From Gemella sp. zg-570 (lineage in GTDB: Bacteria; Bacillota; Bacilli; Staphylococcales; Gemellaceae), in the NCBI RefSeq assembly GCF_018866345.1, contig NZ_CP076443.1:643501-707500 (forward strand): a stretch of 64,000 nt of DNA. The letters are read 5' to 3'. This document shows positions 31,977 to 63,780 of the stretch, piece after piece. A program made the position numbers and the translations under genes. The notes under the pieces are model-generated. The model did no database searches and was not told the DNA's origin. It saw only the letters and a list, made by a program, of their open reading frames with translations. Numbering within the stretch: position 1 is the stretch's first letter; each line of letters starts with the position of its first letter.

Positions 31977-32207
31977 ATGGTAATTTTTGAAGAAGTAAAA
32001 GAAATAATATTAAAACATATAAATATTGATTCTGAAGATATTAAATTAGATTCTAATTTGAATGACGATTTAGACGCTGATTCTATAGAAATAGCTGAAA
32101 TTGTTATGGATATTGAAGAAAAATATAATTTTGAATTTTCTGATGAAGATGCAAGTAATATAGAAAAAATTAGTGATTTAATAAGTCATATAGAAAAAAA
32201 TAAATAG
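31977..32207 (+). CDS. acpP: Acyl carrier protein
   Basis: A 76-residue acidic four-helix protein whose DADSIE motif provides the phosphopantetheine serine S36. DSNLNDDLDADSIEIAEIVM is a slight variation on the normal DSL motif (leucine is replaced by isoleucine). AGGAG precedes the ATG by 11 bases. It carries acyl chains for fatty acid and phospholipid synthesis and is coupled to plsX; a strong terminator follows. Confidence 0.9.
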   Translation: MVIFEEVKEIILKHINIDSEDIKLDSNLNDDLDADSIEIAEIVMDIEEKYNFEFSDEDASNIEKISDLISHIEKNK

Positions 32208-32208
32208 A

Positions 32209-32250
32209 AAAAAGCATAATTTAGATAGGGCGTCTAAATTATGCTTTTTA
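32209..32250 (+). terminator. acpP terminator
   Basis: A 17-bp perfect stem AAAAAGCATAATTTAGA / TCTAAATTATGCTTTTT around TAGGGCG; the A and T runs would let it work for hsdS too. Confidence 0.9.
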
Positions 32251-32269
32251 TAATATAAGATAATAGCTA

Positions 32270-33493
32270 TTAAATAGGTTTTTTCCTATATTCTTCTGGT
32301 ATTTCTATTTCTCTTACATCTATTTTTCCTGTAACTACATCAGAAATTAATGTTAGTTTTAGTTCTTGTAAGTTTTGGATTTGTTGATTTACTAAACTTT
32401 TATACATTTTAATTTTGTTTTCTAACATATTAATTTTTTTATTGATATTTTTCTGAATTTTAATTGTAGGTAATTTAACTTTAGTTTTAATAATTTCATC
32501 GGCAACCACACTTGGCTTCACTGTATTAGTGGTAAATATTTCCCACTTAAATATTCTTAAGATATAATATAAATAATCAAAACTTACTTTTTTATTATTT
32601 GTAATAGCATAAGCAGTGTCAACAAGCCAAAATTTTTTATCTAAAATATAAGGCTTCCCAATAGTTCCTTTTCTTCCAAATATAATATATTTCCCATCAA
32701 ACAAATAATTACTTGTATATTTAAATGCTGTAGGGCCAGAACCATACACTTCAAAAGAAGAACTACTTTTTTTAATTTCATCTACGACTTCTTTTCCAGA
32801 ATACACATTACTAATTCTTTTTAATGTTACTAAATTATAATTTTTCAAGTTATCATATATTGAATTTAATTTATTAAACAACAACTCATCCAGCTTTTCA
32901 ATTTTATTTTTCTCCAGTCCCACCAACCTATCAATCTCCCCTATCTTCCAATCAAGAAAGTTGGCTATTTGGTTTTGTTCTGATAGGGGGGGGATAGCAA
33001 ACGAAAATAAACCTAATTTGTTTTGTGAAATCCCATTTCTATCACCATTAATGTTAGTATTATAGTAATTTTTAAATATAGTTGAATTAATAACATAAAA
33101 TAAAAAATCTATATTTACTTCGAAAGAATTAATATTACACAGTTTATTACCATAACAAGCATCCTCAGTTAATCTAGCAACTTTTTTTCCACCACTTCCA
33201 CCTTCAATACAAACCAACAAACTATTTTTTTGTGCTACTTTAAAGTTTTTGTTTTTATTAGATATATATAGATTAGATTTGTGCTTAATTGATTTAGTTT
33301 CAAAATCTAAATCTGAAGTAGAAATATACTTATAACTATTATCAGTAATGCTAAAGTGTTTTTTTTCTTCATTCTTTATACTATTACCAGTAGTATATTT
33401 TGCTATGTTTTTTAATAAATTTATCTCCCAATGTTCAGGCACTTCCCTTAACCAGGGCAAATCTACTTGCTTATATTTTTTATATCTTTTCAT
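32270..33493 (-). CDS. hsdS: Orphan type I restriction specificity subunit HsdS
   Basis: DNA-recognition subunit of a type I restriction-modification enzyme. The 407 residues start with the family signature PWLREVPEHWEI, then target recognition domain 1, a central conserved helix region (IPPLSEQNQIANFLDWKIGEIDRL), domain 2, and the C-terminal repeat ending LISDVVTGKIDVREI. No hsdM or hsdR lies nearby, so it is an orphan here. The coding strand has eight consecutive C (32986-32993) at codons 167-170, extraordinary for this AT-rich genome and suited to slippage; a shift would leave a protein with one recognition domain. AAGG precedes the ATG. Confidence 0.92.
   Translation of the reverse strand: MKRYKKYKQVDLPWLREVPEHWEINLLKNIAKYTTGNSIKNEEKKHFSITDNSYKYISTSDLDFETKSIKHKSNLYISNKNKNFKVAQKNSLLVCIEGGSGGKKVARLTEDACYGNKLCNINSFEVNIDFLFYVINSTIFKNYYNTNINGDRNGISQNKLGLFSFAIPPLSEQNQIANFLDWKIGEIDRLVGLEKNKIEKLDELLFNKLNSIYDNLKNYNLVTLKRISNVYSGKEVVDEIKKSSSSFEVYGSGPTAFKYTSNYLFDGKYIIFGRKGTIGKPYILDKKFWLVDTAYAITNNKKVSFDYLYYILRIFKWEIFTTNTVKPSVVADEIIKTKVKLPTIKIQKNINKKINMLENKIKMYKSLVNQQIQNLQELKLTLISDVVTGKIDVREIEIPEEYRKKPI
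32986..32993 (-). repeat. Homopolymer of eight C inside hsdS (G8 on plus strand)
   Basis: ATCCCCCCCCTA on the coding strand encodes I-P-P-L of the conserved IPPLSEQ motif. It is the longest G/C run I found in the window; other runs reach six. Confidence 0.9.
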
Positions 33494-33558
33494 TATTTCT
33501 TAATTCCTTGGTTGTTACTTTATTTTCTCGAATTTAATTTTTTCTACTAGGGCTAAGT

Positions 33559-33587
33559 ATAATATAGCACATGGATTTATTATTGAA
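33559..33587 (-). promoter_or_regulatory. Probable hsdS promoter
   Basis: On the minus strand TTCAAT (33587-33582), a 17-base spacer and TATTAT (33564-33559), 66 bases before the ATG. The remainder of the 217-base gap holds only the rplA terminator. Confidence 0.45.
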
Positions 33588-33680
33588 AAGCATTTAGCAA
33601 AGGAAAAAGGGCTAATATTAAAATGATATCAAAATAGAGCTTTTGCTAGTTGTTTTTAATATTCAAAAGTAGTAAAAAAT

Positions 33681-33713
33681 AAAAAACTAGAGGAATTTTC
33701 CTCTAGTTTTTTA
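33681..33713 (-). terminator. rplKA operon terminator
   Basis: Perfect hairpin (AAAACTAGAGGAA with TTCCTCTAGTTTT) followed on the minus strand by a T run, right after the rplA stop. Confidence 0.9.
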
Positions 33714-34403
33714 TTTAAATTCTGCAGTGTCTACTTTTGCAGCAGGTCCCATAGTTGAAGTAACTGCTACAGATTTGAAATAAGTTCCTTTAGCTGCCGC
33801 TGGTTTAGCTTTTGCTAGAGCCTCTTGAACAGCTTTAAAGTTTTCTACTAGGTCTTCAGTAGGGAATGAAACTTTACCGATTGGTGTGTGAACTACACCA
33901 GCTTTTTCAGCACGGTATTCAACTTTACCAGCCTTGATTTCATTTACTGCTTTTGTTACGTCCATAGTAACTGTTCCTGTTTTAGGGTTAGGCATCAAGC
34001 CTTTAGGGCCTAATAGACGACCGATTTTACCAACTTGGCCCATCATATCAGGAGTAGCAACAATTACATCAAAATCAAACCAACCTTGTTGAATTTTAGT
34101 AATATATTCACCTTGTCCTACATAATCAGCTCCGGCTGCTTCTGCTTCTGCAGCCTTATCTCCCTTAGCAAATACTAAAACTTTAGCAGTTTTACCAGTT
34201 CCTTTTGGTAAAACTACAGCTCCACGTACTTGTTGGTCATTTTTACGAGTATCTACTCCAAGACGGAATGCTACTTCGACAGTTGCGTCAAAATTAACAA
34301 GACTAGTTTTTTTAGCTAACTCGATTGCTTCTAGTACTGAATATAGTTTAGAAGAATCTATCAGTTTAGCCGCTTCAAGATATTTTTTACCTTTTTTTGC
34401 CAT
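33711..34403 (-). CDS. rplA: 50S ribosomal protein L1
   Basis: The 230-residue protein of the ribosomal L1 stalk, also a translational repressor of its own operon. Landmarks: [14 protein letters not shown] at the start, [27 protein letters not shown], and the core [29 protein letters not shown] precedes the ATG. It follows rplK after 12 bases on the minus strand, opposite to most of the window. Confidence 0.99.
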
Positions 34404-34415
34404 TTTATTATCCTC

Positions 34416-34841
34416 CTATTCAGCTACTAAGATACCCATACTACGTGCAGTACCTTCAATCATACGAACAGCTGCTTCAACCGATGCAGCGTTTAAGTCT
34501 TCCATTTTCAGTTTAGCTATTTCTTCAACTTGCTCTTTAGTTACTGTAGCAACTTTGTCTTTGTTTGGCACTGAAGAACCTTTTTCAATTTTAGCTGCTT
34601 TTTTCAGTAATACTGGAGCAGGTGGTGTTTTAGTAATAAAAGTAAATGAGCGGTCTTCATATACAGAAATTACTACGGGAATAACTAATCCTGCTTGGTC
34701 TTGTGTACGAGCGTTAAACTCTTTACAGAATCCCATGATATTAACTCCAGCTTGCCCTAAGGCAGGTCCTACTGGTGGAGCAGGGTTAGCTTTACCTGCT
34801 GGAACTTGTAACTTAACTAATTTAATAATTTTTTTAGCCAC
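34416..34841 (-). CDS. rplK: 50S ribosomal protein L11
   Basis: A 141-residue protein of the GTPase-associated centre that binds the thiostrepton region of 23S rRNA. Landmarks: [38 protein letters not shown] and the C-terminal GTARSMGI. The start codon is GTG, preceded by AGGAGG. The usual upstream partners secE and nusG are absent; the operon has its own promoter and leader. Confidence 0.99.
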
Positions 34842-34863
34842 GATAAACCTCCTATTATTTTTC

Positions 34864-34900
34864 GTGATGTGGTCTTTGAACTCTTATTGTTCTCCCACTC
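34864..34900 (-). promoter_or_regulatory. Probable L1-binding autoregulatory leader of rplK-rplA mRNA
   Basis: The minus-strand leader contains GTGGGAGAAC, a loop, GTTC, AAAG and ACCACATCACG. GTGG pairs with CCAC and GAAC with GTTC, leaving a purine internal loop. This is the general form of L1-leader structures that mimic the 23S L1 site. It lies between the promoter and the rplK ribosome site, where bound L1 would block translation. Confidence 0.55.
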
Positions 34901-34930
34901 AAACATTATGTATTTTTTAAATACTGGATA

Positions 34931-34959
34931 ATTTTAACACAAGAAAATATATAATTCAA
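34931..34959 (-). promoter_or_regulatory. rplK-rplA promoter
   Basis: On the minus strand TTGAAT (34959-34954), a 17-base spacer ending TGT, and TAAAAT (34936-34931); the leader would be about 85 bases. Confidence 0.7.
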
Positions 34960-34998
34960 GTCTTTTATTATATTTTATTAATAAAATATTTGCTTATA

Positions 34999-35027
34999 TT
35001 GACTTTTATTAGATAATATTGTAGAAT
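34999..35027 (+). promoter_or_regulatory. rny promoter
   Basis: TTGACT (34999-35004), a 17-base spacer, TAGAAT (35022-35027). Transcription from about 35034 argues for the rny start at 35093 rather than 35051. Confidence 0.65.
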
Positions 35028-35092
35028 TTAGTATGTGATAATTATTCACGATGAATTACAAATCAATAAATAAATTTAAAGAGAGGTTGCAA

Positions 35093-36643
35093 ATGTTTTA
35101 TGGAAGCATAATTGCAACTTTACTTGTTGGAATTATATCTGGATATTTTGTTGCTAAAAATACTATTCAAAAAAAATTAGTTTTATCTAAGCAAGATGCT
35201 GAATATATAGTTAATGAAGCTAAAAAGGAGGCTAAATTTATTTCTGAAAAGGAATTATTAATAGCTAAAAATGAGGCTAAAGAAATTGTTAATATTGCTA
35301 ATAAGGAAATAGAATTTAAAAAGCAAGATATAGAAAAACAAGAAGAAAGACTTATTCAAAAAGAAGCCTCTTTGGATAGACAGACAGAATTGGTTAATAA
35401 AAAGGATGAATTAATTAGTTCTAGGGAATTGAAATTAGAAGAGAAACTTCAAATTGTTGAAGATAAGAATGCAGAATTGAATGAGTTGAAAGTTCAACAA
35501 GAAAAAGAGTTGCAAAGAATTGCAAACTTGACTGAAGAACAAGCTCGAGAAGAAATAATTTCATCATTAGAAGAAGAAATGTCTAAGGAAACAGCTGTCT
35601 ATATAAGAAATAGGGAAGCTGAAGCTAAGGATGTTGCTGATAGGCGTGCAAAAGAATTGATAATACAATCTATGCAAAAATTTGCATCAGAAGTTGTAGC
35701 TGAAAATACGGTATCTGTTGTTGATTTGCCTTCTGACGATATGAAAGGGAGAATTATTGGGAGAGAGGGTCGGAATATAAGAGCCTTAGAAACTTTAACT
35801 GGTGTTGATTTGATAATAGATGATACTCCAGAAGCAGTATTGTTGTCGGGTTATGACCCAATAAGAAGAGAAATTGCTAAAACGGCTATTAATATGTTGA
35901 TTGCTGATGGGAGGATACATCCAGCTAAGATAGAAGATGCTGTTGATAGGGCTAGAAAAGATATTGACCAGCATATTAGAGATGTTGGAGAACAGGCTAC
36001 ATTTGATTTGGGTATTCATAATATGCATCCTGATTTAATAAAGATATTAGGTAAGATGAAGTATAGAACAAGCTATGGGCAAAATGGTTTGCAGCATTCT
36101 ATTGAGGTTGCTTATATTTCAGGTATAATAGCTGGTGAATTGGGACTAGATATTCAAATGGCAAGGCGGGCAGGCTTACTTCATGATATAGGGAAGGCTG
36201 TTGACCATGAAGTAGAGGGTTCTCATGTTGAAGTTGGGGTGATGTTGGCTAATAAATATAAGGAGCATCCAATAGTAATTAATGCGATAGCTTCTCATCA
36301 TGGAGATTGTGAAGCTAGTGACCCGATATCGGTGGTGGTTGCTACGGCAGATGCTTTATCAGCTTCGAGACCGGGTGCTAGAAGAGAATCCTTAGAGGCA
36401 TATATAAAACGACTTCAGGGCCTTGAAGAAATTGCGAATGAGCATAGGGGTGTTGAAAAAACTTATGCTATTAAGGCGGGTAGGGAAATAAGAGTTATTG
36501 TTAATCCTGAAGAAGTAGACGACACAAAAGCCTATAAGATTGCAAAAGAAGTAAGGAATAAAATTGAAGAAAGTATGCACTATCCTGGCAATATAAAAGT
36601 GAATGTAATTCGAGAAGTTCGAGCAGTTAAGATTGCAAAATAA
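35093..36643 (+). CDS. rny: Ribonuclease Y
   Basis: Membrane-bound endoribonuclease that starts mRNA decay. From ATG 35093 (with GAGAGG upstream) the 516 residues have an N-terminal membrane helix ([20 protein letters not shown]), a long coiled coil to about 190, a KH domain ([16 protein letters not shown]) and an HD domain with LLHDIGKA and ASHHGD. The ATG at 35051 in the same frame lacks a ribosome site. With RNase J1 at 26.4 kb this gives both main Firmicute decay nucleases. Confidence 0.97.
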
Positions 36644-59020: not shown

Positions 59021-59242
59021 TTGAGAACTAAAGTAAATAGAGAAACTTGTATATCTTGTGGCAATTGCTATTCTATTTGCCCTGAAATTTATGAATGTGA
59101 TGAAGACGGTATTGCATTTTGCAAATTGGATAACAACAAGATGATAAAGACAGTAGATGATAAATTCAAATCTTTGTTATTAGAATGTTATGATTCATGT
59201 CCCACAGAATCTATAATTATAGAAAATATTGAAAGCAGGTGA
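59021..59242 (+). CDS. fer: 4Fe-4S ferredoxin
   Basis: A 73-residue low-potential electron carrier with CISCGNCYSICP and a distal CYDSCP. Together these supply one 4Fe-4S cluster, with an extra cysteine in the first motif, as in Bacillus Fer-type proteins. The start is TTG with GGGAG nine bases away. Acidic overall. Its redox partners are not evident. Confidence 0.9.
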   Translation: MRTKVNRETCISCGNCYSICPEIYECDEDGIAFCKLDNNKMIKTVDDKFKSLLLECYDSCPTESIIIENIESR

Positions 59243-59246
59243 TATT

Positions 59247-61457
59247 TTGTCAAAAAATAGGTTGAAAAAAAATAAAAAAATAAAATCAAAAAAAAAATCA
59301 ACTTCAGTTTATAAGTTATTTTTAAATTTCAAAGAAAATAATACCAGTTTTTATAATTTTTTTATTTACATAGTTCTTATTGCTATAACTACAATAACAA
59401 CTTTAAGAATGGGTTGGCTAGGTCAAACTTTTGATAATTTTATTAAATATTTATTAGGTAGTTCAAGCTATATTTTATATTTAATAGTTTTCTCTAGCGT
59501 AATATTTTCTATATTTAAAAAAAGTTTACATAATAAAATATATGTAGTAGTTATTATTTTTTTATTTTCTTTAATATTAGAATTATTTTTTTACAAATCT
59601 AGTAATTATAACTTATTTTCGTATTTTTATGTTTCTGAAAACTATAATTCTTTTTTAGGAGGGGGAAAAATTTTTTATTTTCAAAGTAAGCTAGTAGTTT
59701 ACTTATTATCTTATTATGGAGCTTTGATATTAGCTATATCTCTATTTATATTTACCATAATAATGTATATAAATAAATTATTCCCAGATAAAATTTCTAG
59801 TTTGATAACTAGTATATCATCTAAAAAGAATTTATATTTAGAAAACGAAGAAGTTGAATTTACCAAAGAATTAGATGAAGCTGATAAAATAAATACTTAT
59901 TATGATGAAATTAAAGATATTGATTTAGAAATATCAATAAATGATTTTAAAAATGAGGACTTAATAAAAGAGGATAATTTAAAAGATAATAATTATAATA
60001 CTTCTAAAAAAGAAGAAAAATTAAATTATGAAGCAGTAAATGATTATGAACATTATACTTTACCACCGCTTTCATTGTTAAAAGACCCAGTAGAGAATAA
60101 AAAAATTTCAAAAGAAGATATAGTTAATAAATCTAAGATTTTAAAAAATACATTTAAAAATTTTGGAGTAGAGGTAAAAATTGTAAAAGCTATAGTAGGA
60201 CCATCAATAACTCAATTTCAAATTATGCCGACTCCTGGTACCAAGGTTAGTAAAATAATTAATTTGAGTAATGATATTTCCTTAAATTTAGCAGCTAAAG
60301 ATGTTAGAATTGAAGCACCGATACCTGGCAAATCTCTAATAGGAATTGAAATACCCAATAGTGTTAATCAGTTGGTAACCATGAAAGAAGTTTTTGTTAA
60401 TGGAAATGACGCTTCCCCCTTATCGGTTACTTTAGGAAAAGATGTTTCTGGAGAATCTATTTTTGCAAGATTGGATAAGATGCCCCATCTTTTAGTTGCA
60501 GGGTCTACTGGTAGTGGTAAGTCTGTTTGTATAAATACCATTATAACAAGTATTTTATTAAAAAATAAACCAGATAAGGTTAAATTGATAATGATTGATC
60601 CAAAAATGGTAGAATTATCTATTTATGATGGGATACCACATCTGTTAACGCCAGTAGTAACTAATCCTTTAAAAGCTGCTGATGTTTTATATAAGGTAGT
60701 TTTAGAAATGGAAAGAAGATACAAAGAATTTTCTATTGCCAGAGTTAAAAATATTGAGGGTTATAACAAAATAGCACAAGAAGATGAAGAATATAAAGAA
60801 TTACCATACATAGTTATTATTATTGATGAATTAGCAGATTTAATGCTAGTTGCTTCAAAAGAAGTAGAAGAGTCAATTGCTAGAATAACTCAAATGGCAA
60901 GGGCTGCTGGTATACATTTAATAATAGCTACCCAAAGACCATCGGTTGACGTTATAACTGGAGTAATAAAATCAAATATACCATCTCGTATTTCTTTTGC
61001 TGTAAGTTCTAGTATAGATTCAAGAACTATCTTAGATAAGGCAGGGGCAGAAACTTTACTAGGAAGGGGGGATATGCTATTTCAATCAGCAGAATCTAGC
61101 AAGCCTGTGAGATTGCAAGGAGCATTTTTATCTGATTTAGAAGTAGAAAATATTGTAGACTTTATAAAAAATCAGTCTAAAACTGATTACGACCCTAGCA
61201 TGAAACCATCAGAAAATTCATCAAGAGAAGCTGGAAAATCTGATGAAGTAGACCCTCTATATAAAGAAGTATTACTTTTCATAGCAAAAACTCAAAAGGC
61301 TTCAGCTTCATTATTGCAAAGAAGATTCAAAATTGGATATAATAGGGCGGCAAGAATCATAGAGACCCTAGAAGAAGACGGCTATATAGGAGCTGCTGAT
61401 GGAAGCAAGCCAAGAAAAGTATTTTTAGAACCAGAATTTGCAGAAAATAATCAATAG
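59247..61457 (+). CDS. ftsK: DNA translocase FtsK/SpoIIIE
   Basis: Septal DNA pump that segregates chromosome termini. The 736 residues have four membrane helices (about 30-180), a charged linker, the alpha/beta motor (Walker A AGSTGSGKSV; IIIDELADLML; QRPSVDVITG) and a C-terminal gamma winged helix (SLLQRRFKIGYNRAARIIE) for reading KOPS/SRS signals. TTG 59247 has AGGTGA seven bases upstream and is preferred over TTG 59229, which lies inside the ferredoxin gene. It lies close to xerS and the candidate dif. Confidence 0.95.
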   Translation: MSKNRLKKNKKIKSKKKSTSVYKLFLNFKENNTSFYNFFIYIVLIAITTITTLRMGWLGQTFDNFIKYLLGSSSYILYLIVFSSVIFSIFKKSLHNKIYVVVIIFLFSLILELFFYKSSNYNLFSYFYVSENYNSFLGGGKIFYFQSKLVVYLLSYYGALILAISLFIFTIIMYINKLFPDKISSLITSISSKKNLYLENEEVEFTKELDEADKINTYYDEIKDIDLEISINDFKNEDLIKEDNLKDNNYNTSKKEEKLNYEAVNDYEHYTLPPLSLLKDPVENKKISKEDIVNKSKILKNTFKNFGVEVKIVKAIVGPSITQFQIMPTPGTKVSKIINLSNDISLNLAAKDVRIEAPIPGKSLIGIEIPNSVNQLVTMKEVFVNGNDASPLSVTLGKDVSGESIFARLDKMPHLLVAGSTGSGKSVCINTIITSILLKNKPDKVKLIMIDPKMVELSIYDGIPHLLTPVVTNPLKAADVLYKVVLEMERRYKEFSIARVKNIEGYNKIAQEDEEYKELPYIVIIIDELADLMLVASKEVEESIARITQMARAAGIHLIIATQRPSVDVITGVIKSNIPSRISFAVSSSIDSRTILDKAGAETLLGRGDMLFQSAESSKPVRLQGAFLSDLEVENIVDFIKNQSKTDYDPSMKPSENSSREAGKSDEVDPLYKEVLLFIAKTQKASASLLQRRFKIGYNRAARIIETLEEDGYIGAADGSKPRKVFLEPEFAENNQ

Positions 61458-62334: not shown

Positions 62335-63381
62335 TTATTCATCTAATTTTTCAATGGATTTTTTAATTATTTTCTTTGATTCGTTTATATATAGAATGGA
62401 AGTTTCGCTACTTGAATGACCCATTTGTGTCATTATTATTGGTATATTTCCATTTGTTTTTTGGGCAAGTTTAGTACCGTAGCTATGCCTTAATTTATGA
62501 GGGGACATAGGTATATTATAACTTTCAGTATATTTCATAACTAATTTTTGTATGCTTCTAATAGAGATACCTTTTTTATTTTTAGTTACAAACAAATTAT
62601 CTTCCCTACCTAATTCTAAAGGTAGAGTAGTTAAGTAATTTTTAATTTTTTTAATAGCAGAATCTGTAATTATTACAGTGTCGTATTTTCCACCTTTTCT
62701 AATTACATTAATTTCAGAATTTTTAAAGTCAATATCTTTAATTTTTAAATTAGCTAGTTCGTTAACCCTAATACCGCTTCTTAAAAATAAAGTTAAAATA
62801 GCTATATCTCGATTTTTATCTCTTAAAAAGAATGTTTTGGCATGTTTAGATAAAGTTTTTTCATATTCAAATTCTATATAATTTAAAAATTCATCATCTT
62901 GAGAATCTAAAAATATTTTTTCTGATATTTTTTTTGACCTAGATGATAATGTTTCTTTTACTCTGTTAATAGGAATTTTTAACATTACATTTCTTTCAAA
63001 GTAGGATTTTCCTAATTCATTTTCACTGGTAATTGTTAAAAATTTATATAATGAACGCATGGCGGCTTTATAATTATTTATTGTAGTTTGAGAACGATAT
63101 TTTCCATTTATTTCTTCACGAGCTAATTTTTTGAAATATGATTCCATTTCTTTTTTTGATAAATTTTCTAAGGTAGATATTTTTACCGATTTAATATTAT
63201 CAGCTTCAGAAATACATTCAGTTATTAACCAATTTAAAAATGAATGATAAGTTTCTAAATAGCGATGTAGAGTTAGAGGTGATAAAATGTCATAGAAAGT
63301 ATCAAAAAAATCTTCTATATATTCTGGAAAATTTTTTATATTATTATTTATTTTTTTTTTATAATAATCTTTTTGGTTCAT
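62335..63381 (-). CDS. xerS: Tyrosine recombinase XerS
   Basis: Single-protein chromosome-dimer resolvase otherwise typical of streptococci and lactococci. The 348 residues match XerS as I know it along their length: STLENLSKKEMESYFKKL, SQTTINNYKAAMRSLYKFL, YFERNVM, ETLSSRSKKISEKIFL, then the catalytic SGIRVNEL, RKGGKYDT, HKLRHSYGTKLA and GHSSSETSILY. The start at 63381 has GGAG seven bases away; an ATG at 63408 lacks one. A dif-like site lies 29 bases upstream of the start, as difSL lies beside xerS in lactococci. A generic phage-type integrase is less likely. Confidence 0.85.
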   Translation of the reverse strand: MNQKDYYKKKINNNIKNFPEYIEDFFDTFYDILSPLTLHRYLETYHSFLNWLITECISEADNIKSVKISTLENLSKKEMESYFKKLAREEINGKYRSQTTINNYKAAMRSLYKFLTITSENELGKSYFERNVMLKIPINRVKETLSSRSKKISEKIFLDSQDDEFLNYIEFEYEKTLSKHAKTFFLRDKNRDIAILTLFLRSGIRVNELANLKIKDIDFKNSEINVIRKGGKYDTVIITDSAIKKIKNYLTTLPLELGREDNLFVTKNKKGISIRSIQKLVMKYTESYNIPMSPHKLRHSYGTKLAQKTNGNIPIIMTQMGHSSSETSILYINESKKIIKKSIEKLDE

Positions 63382-63409
63382 TGTTTTCTCCACCTTTATC
63401 TTTTTCATT

Positions 63410-63437
63410 TATACATATAATATGTATTATGCGAATA
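63410..63437. other. Candidate dif site (XerS recombination site)
   Basis: A 28-base sequence with 11-6-11 layout: TATACATATAA, TATGTA, TTATGCGAATA. The arms are inverted repeats at 8 of 11 positions. Read on the minus strand it shares TCGCATAA and TTAT with the E. coli dif arms as I remember them (about 18 of 28 bases). It sits between the xerS start and its promoter region. Confidence 0.5.
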
Positions 63438-63540
63438 ATTATATCATACTATAAATTTATATAATATTCAAAATAAAAAGCCGAGATTATTTATCTTGAC
63501 TTAATTTAGCATTTCTTATAGCTTCAAATGAAAGCAAAGT

Positions 63541-63591: not shown

Positions 63592-63780
63592 TTATACACG
63601 TTGCACTTTTCCAGATTTTAAAGCACGGGCAGAAACCCAAACTTTTTTAGGTTCTCCGTCAACTAAAATAGTTACTTTTTGTAAGTTAGCTTTAAATCTT
63701 CTTTTTGTAGCGTTCATTGCATGTGAACGAGTATTTCCTGAACGTGCTTTACGCCCAGTAACGTAACAAACTTTTGCCAT
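63592..63780 (-). CDS. rpmB: 50S ribosomal protein L28
   Basis: The 62-residue protein starts [22 protein letters not shown] and ends [14 protein letters not shown], matching Firmicute L28 throughout. Only one of the zinc cysteines found in some L28 proteins is present. AAAGGAGG lies just before the ATG on the minus strand. It is monocistronic with its own promoter and terminator. Confidence 0.98.

What the first reader, a model, noticed from the sequence alone, without database searches (positions are those of the whole stretch)
63410..63437. Candidate dif site directly upstream of xerS
Seen: two 11-base arms matching as inverted repeats at 8 of 11 positions around a 6-base centre, with one arm containing the CGCATAA block of classical dif. 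Known: in Lactococcus/Streptococcus the XerS site difSL is located beside xerS. Inference: this is the dimer-resolution site. It looks more like a classical XerCD dif than like difSL, which would be a mix of a XerS-type recombinase with a classical-type site.
Basis: partly seen in the sequence, partly recalled or inferred. Interest (0 to 1): 0.65.

Follow-up and report, generated by a model that had tools for sequence, protein, structure and literature searches.

The report
Gemella chromosome dif site for XerS
In Gemella bacteria this short DNA palindrome sits exactly where chromosome replication ends and next to the gene xerS; it is almost certainly the site where XerS separates chromosomes that have become joined, and both the enzyme and half of the site are closest to those of large Bacillus-family plasmids rather than to the usual chromosomal system.

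Summary
Confirmed as a dif site, with a corrected origin. The window is from a complete 1.56-Mb Gemella genome. The 8-of-11 inverted repeat alone is chance-level: about 2,000 such 28-mers occur in 400 kb. Independent tests are strong. (1) The block 63407-63438 is nearly invariant upstream of xerS in nine Gemella genomes, while its flanks are scrambled. (2) It is unique in the genome. (3) The cumulative GC-skew maximum lies 0.9 kb away, three polarised 7-mers switch around it, and the skew also flips in five relatives. (4) The genome has no XerC or XerD, only XerS with an intact active site; a XerD-like protein beside scpAB has lost catalytic residues. However, its nearest known relatives are sites directly upstream of xerS on Bacillaceae megaplasmids, which share an exact 15-mer (TGTTCGTATAATACA) with Gemella variants. 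Gemella XerS also nests inside that plasmid clade, not with streptococcal XerS. So it is best read as a XerS-type site of a plasmid-related lineage that took over chromosome dimer resolution, not as XerS working on a borrowed XerCD dif. Function is inferred; no recombination has been shown.

The parts
63410..63437 (-). Gemella dif site (11-6-11): TATTCGCATAA TACATA TTATATGTATA
63407..63438 (-). full block of nearly invariant columns across nine Gemella genomes (about 32 bp)
62335..63381 (-). xerS, single tyrosine recombinase (348 aa from MNQ; ORF open from 63408)
   Evidence: NCBIfam XerS equivalog 350.9 bits against cut-off 267; catalytic R, K, H-x-x-R, H, Y all present
63443..63471 (-). putative xerS promoter TTGAAT-17-TATGAT, ending about 5 bp before the conserved block
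   Evidence: consensus match only; a promoter-like sequence with TATAAT precedes the site in relatives
59229..61457 (+). ftsK/spoIIIE translocase with alpha, motor and gamma domains, 2 kb from the site; linkage kept in L004, L005, L007, L008
61557..62141 (+). pgsA, between ftsK and xerS (synteny marker)
63592..63780 (-). rpmB, on the other side of the site (synteny marker)

Best explanation
This is the chromosome dimer resolution (dif) site of Gemella, used by the single recombinase XerS encoded beside it. Proposed mechanism (inferred from XerS/difSL and XerCD): two XerS monomers bind the inverted arms on each of two dif copies in a chromosome dimer. FtsK, loaded at the septum and steered by polarised motifs that converge on the site, brings the two copies together and activates XerS. 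XerS then exchanges strands around the 6-bp centre to give two monomers. Gemella XerS and its site descend from the same lineage as the xerS-plus-site modules of Bacillaceae megaplasmids and have replaced the XerC/XerD/dif system that the relatives in the same order (families f2 and f3, Staphylococcus-like) retain. Shown here: the sequence, its conservation, uniqueness, position at the skew switch, intact XerS active site, absence of XerC/XerD, and kinship of XerS and site to the plasmid modules. Inferred: binding, cleavage, FtsK dependence and direction of transfer.
For: Skew maximum at 706,011 against site 706,910-706,937 in a genome with dnaA at position 164. GAAGAAG, GAAGATG and ATGAAAG each change polarity within 704.3-709.4 kb. 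GC skew flips from + to - across the site in L003, L004, L005, L007 and L008. Invariant block in nine genomes. One copy per genome, and none in the two genomes where no xerS was found. No XerC or XerD over the NCBIfam cut-offs in four Gemella genomes, while the order-mates tested have both plus one classical dif. XerS residues intact, XerD-like degenerate. Gemella XerS falls with seven plasmid XerS (SH-aLRT 96) inside a 26-row clade (99), away from streptococcal XerS. The exact 15-mer TGTTCGTATAATACA lies 52-97 bp upstream of xerS on three such plasmids and 14/15 on a fourth, with no match of 14 or more in 800,000 positions of the Gemella genome region scanned.
Against: No biochemical evidence. 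The right arm of the Gemella site lacks the TTCG box seen in both arms of most plasmid-type sites, so XerS may bind it weakly or differently. Three of the seven plasmid relatives (L278-L280) show no such site in the roughly 1.4 kb upstream. The window's own species has C where the plasmid 15-mer has T, and A where it has G; the exact match is to the G. haemolysans (L004), G. sanguinis and G. bergeri variants. The tree is a quick search with long branches.
Confidence: 0.88

Rival explanations
1. A classical XerCD-type dif inherited from the staphylococcal ancestor, with XerS now acting on it.
For: 20/30 matches to the Staphylococcus-like dif and to the f46 dif, including TTCGTATAAT in the left arm; geometry 11-6-11 with TTAT at the inner right edge.
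Against: The XerD arm TTATGTAAAC is missing; XerC and XerD are missing; sites in front of the nearest XerS relatives match better, with an exact 15-mer; the site is directly upstream of xerS as in the plasmid modules.
Confidence: 0.12
2. An operator or 5'-UTR element that only regulates xerS, with no recombination.
For: It lies about 5 bp downstream of a putative -10 box and before the start codon, so bound XerS would probably repress its own gene.
Against: No reason for a plain operator to sit at the GC-skew switch in every Gemella tested. The position and orientation relative to the promoter differ between Gemella and the plasmid and streptococcal xerS genes, though each has an adjacent site. 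About 30 nearly invariant bases is longer than usual for an operator.
Confidence: 0.05
3. A difSL site in the strict streptococcal sense, acquired with a streptococcal xerS.
For: xerS is adjacent in both; 15/30 matches, p about 0.03 by composition shuffles.
Against: Streptococcal sites are almost identical to each other (TTTCCGAAAAACTATAATTTTCTTGAAA) and unlike this one; Gemella XerS branches away from the Streptococcus/f7/f46 clade.
Confidence: 0.02

Closest known systems
XerS/difSL of Streptococcus and Lactococcus (review PMC5357621)
   Same: A single 350-360 aa XerS, site directly upstream of its gene, at the terminus, no XerC/XerD; a degenerate XerD-like protein beside scpAB also occurs in Streptococcus.
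   Different: Site sequence unrelated beyond composition (15/30); Gemella XerS is in another XerS clade; the site lies downstream of the putative promoter, whereas the right arm of streptococcal difSL appears to carry the -35 hexamer of xerS.
xerS plus adjacent site on Bacillaceae megaplasmids (Niallia, Cytobacillus, Mesobacillus, Alkalihalophilus pBpOF4-01)
   Same: Closest XerS relatives (44-47% identity) and a 14-15-base match covering the left arm and half of the centre.
   Different: Plasmid-borne, orientation relative to xerS reversed, both arms usually carry the TTCG box; no dif function has been shown and none of the papers searched described them.
Classical XerCD dif of Staphylococcus-like order-mates (f2, f3)
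   Same: 11-6-11 layout, low GC, at the terminus in known systems, CGYATAA-like left arm.
   Different: The XerD arm is not conserved; no XerC/XerD in Gemella.
XerH/difH of Campylobacter and Helicobacter (PMC2731167)
   Same: Single recombinase with a nearby site.
   Different: XerH is phylogenetically unrelated to XerS according to that paper; not compared by sequence here.

Membership tests
XerS recombinase | NCBIfam XerS equivalog score above cut-off | tested here: met
   350.9 bits against 267
XerS recombinase | intact tyrosine recombinase residues R-K-HxxR-H-Y | tested here: met
   alignment
dif site (general) | located at the GC-skew switch | tested here: met
   0.9 kb from the maximum; flips in five relatives
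dif site (general) | single copy, non-coding, AT-rich | tested here: met
dif site (general) | palindromic arms around a 6-8 bp centre | tested here: met
   8/11 with a 6-bp centre, although this alone is chance-level
dif site (general) | recombinase binds, cleaves and recombines the site | not testable with these tools
   needs bench work
classical XerCD/dif | XerC and XerD both present | tested here: not met
   none over cut-off in four Gemella genomes
classical XerCD/dif | conserved XerD arm TTATGTNAAC | tested here: not met
   right arm is TTATATGTATA
streptococcal XerS/difSL | difSL sequence | tested here: not met
   15/30, shuffle p 0.034
streptococcal XerS/difSL | single recombinase with site directly upstream of its gene at the terminus | tested here: met
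streptococcal XerS/difSL | recombinase in the streptococcal XerS clade | tested here: not met
plasmid-type xerS/site module | XerS inside the clade and a TTGTTCGTATAATACA-like arm and centre upstream | tested here: met
   the right arm differs

The most novel reading that the evidence does not exclude
A plasmid maintenance module (xerS plus its site) was captured at the Gemella terminus and replaced the ancestral XerCD/dif system, independently of the streptococcal XerS takeover; in both lineages the old XerD survives only as a catalytically dead relic in front of scpAB. Single-recombinase dimer resolution would then have arisen at least twice within the XerS family by domestication.
Probability: 0.55. 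Interest if true: 0.6.

Novelty: new variant of a known kind. Interest (0 to 1): 0.5.

Why it matters
No chromosome dimer resolution site for Gemella was found in the open-access papers searched. It extends single-recombinase XerS/dif systems beyond Streptococcaceae, gives a precise terminus marker for the genus, and shows that XerS sites change with their XerS clade. That makes XerS a test case for how a recombinase and its site co-evolve, and for how a plasmid segregation module may displace a core chromosomal system.

Tried and rejected
Inverted-repeat symmetry as evidence was rejected as chance-level. A second classical dif in Gemella was looked for with the pattern ATAATATATATTATGTWAA: no hit with fewer than 2 mismatches (the reversed control pattern also gave hits). 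Phages or elements carrying the Gemella site: none in viral contigs. Streptococcal transfer of xerS was rejected by the trees. Whether the plasmid site sits at a plasmid GC-skew maximum: not so in the Niallia plasmid, where xerS is near FtsZ-like and primase genes. In the table two plasmid sites (L275, L276) were entered out of register; the corrected counts are. The whole genome was not available as a file, so skew was measured on 400 contiguous kb plus 20 sampled 10-kb stretches.

Full report
WHAT IS THERE. The window is bases 643,501-707,500 of a complete 1,558,665-bp chromosome; the relatives with 78-86% identical XerS are all Gemella. This symmetry is not remarkable by itself: 1,998 of 399,973 28-mers in the surrounding 400 kb do as well.

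WHY IT IS NEVERTHELESS A REAL FEATURE. Upstream of xerS in eight further Gemella genomes the same sequence recurs. An ungapped alignment of the nine shows TTCG[CT]ATAATACATATTATATGTA with a single C/T variable position, and near-invariance from 63438 to 63407, while columns on both sides mostly fall to 0.33-0.78 identity. The 28-mer occurs once in the own genome and once in each of the three other Gemella genomes where xerS was found; two genomes without a detected xerS (one of them 66% complete) have none. xerS, the site, rpmB on one side and pgsA-ftsK on the other keep their order in L004, L005, L007 and L008.

TERMINUS. dnaA begins at about base 164. In 400 contiguous kb the cumulative GC skew peaks at 706,011; the site is at 706,910-706,937. 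Sampled stretches elsewhere are mostly positive before and all negative after it. Three strongly polarised 7-mers, including GAAGAAG (153 leading-strand against 15 lagging-strand copies within 140 kb on either side), switch polarity between 704.3 and 709.4 kb. In L003, L004, L005, L007 and L008 GC skew is +0.11 to +0.18 before the site and -0.16 to -0.21 after it.

THE RECOMBINASE. The neighbour is a XerS by NCBIfam (350.9 bits, cut-off 267) with R, K, HxLRH, GH and Y in place. The own genome has only two other Phage_integrase matches: a stop-ridden relic at 544.7 kb and a 297-aa XerD-like protein beside scpA and scpB. The latter scores 183 bits against the XerD cut-off of 330, and its first catalytic R, the H of HxxR and the H of GH are replaced. 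XerC is absent. Order-mates in families f2 and f3 (unnamed in the collection; Staphylococcus- and Macrococcus-like by size and kinship, an inference) have XerC, XerD and one classical dif, ACTTCCTATAATATATATTATGTAAACT. FtsK next door has alpha, motor and gamma domains.

WHICH KIND OF SITE. But looking at what lies in front of other xerS genes changes the reading. Across Bacilli, many XerS groups have their own adjacent site with about 12-bp arms and a 6-bp centre: TATTACGTAAAA TATAAA TTTGACGTAATA in most f16 genomes that have xerS and in f58; TTGTTCGTTAAA ATTGTA TTTTGCGAACAA in f5; CTTTCTTGAAAG TATCAT CTTTCAAGAAAG in f7; difSL in Streptococcus. Relatives of Gemella XerS occur on 515 plasmids, and the nearest are on Niallia, Cytobacillus, Mesobacillus and Alkalihalophilus megaplasmids. 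Three of those have TGTTCGTATAATACA 52-97 bp upstream of xerS and a fourth has 14 of 15; this 15-mer is identical in the sites of L004 (G. haemolysans), L008 (G. sanguinis) and L009 (G. bergeri), and no match of 14 or more occurs in the 400 kb of the own genome on both strands. Three other plasmids of the group show no such site. In the tree Gemella XerS joins the seven plasmid proteins (SH-aLRT 96) inside a 26-row, largely plasmid clade (99), apart from streptococcal XerS (an earlier tree without the named plasmids, also separates it from Streptococcus). Site and enzyme therefore point the same way.

MECHANISM. Most likely XerS dimers on two dif copies, aligned by FtsK at the septum, exchange strands across TACATA and resolve chromosome dimers. 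Binding, cleavage position, order of strand exchange and FtsK dependence are inferred from XerS/difSL (PMC5357621). The invariant but TTCG-less right arm suggests an asymmetric complex, comparable with the left-right bias reported for difSL. The location between promoter and start codon makes autoregulation of xerS plausible (inference).

LIMITS. No recombination is shown. A remote common origin of XerS sites and classical dif cannot be excluded, since both share AT-rich inner arms and f46 dif shares TTCGTATAAT. The direction plasmid to chromosome is inferred from nesting in a quick tree with long branches. Literature absence refers only to the open-access library searched.

Noticed in passing
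L023 1438-2331 (G000 about 790.2-791.1 kb); L293: A catalytically dead XerD-like protein is kept in front of scpA-scpB in Gemella and, as a shorter 243-aa form, also in a Streptococcus: parallel decay of XerD in two XerS lineages.
   Followed up: partly
L164, L165 (f46), L166-L168 (f7): In two other Bacilli families that keep XerC and XerD, xerS lies only 0.4-1.2 kb from a classical dif, as if XerS modules settle near dif.
   Followed up: partly
L166 2675 and 5673: Two dif-like copies on the same strand about 3 kb apart in G117, flanking a few genes: a possible element integrated at dif.
   Followed up: no
L074, L076, L070, L071, L090 upstream of xerS: LexA-like boxes (CAAACATACGTTTG, GAACATATGTTCG) precede xerS in several families, suggesting SOS control of XerS.
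   Followed up: no
L234-L256, L082 upstream of xerS: A virtually invariant palindrome TATTACGTAAAA TATAAA TTTGACGTAATA sits 70-140 bp before xerS in two families (f16, f58): another candidate XerS site.
   Followed up: partly
L044-L068 upstream of xerS: The right arm of streptococcal difSL carries a TTGAAA hexamer 17 bp from a TATACT box, so the site may double as the -35 element of xerS.
   Followed up: no
L277, L282-L286 upstream of xerS: A TTATGTAAAC element, like the classical XerD arm, lies next to the XerS site on several plasmids.
   Followed up: no
L070, L071, L074-L076 XerS: XerS of families f46 and f7 have LGQ where other tyrosine recombinases have LGH near the catalytic tyrosine.
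   Followed up: no
L002, L006, L009: Contigs of three Gemella genomes end 0.1-0.3 kb after xerS, hinting at a repeat or rearrangement at the terminus.
   Followed up: no
window 32001-36000: Local drop of GC skew to 0.015 within an otherwise strongly positive replichore.
   Followed up: no
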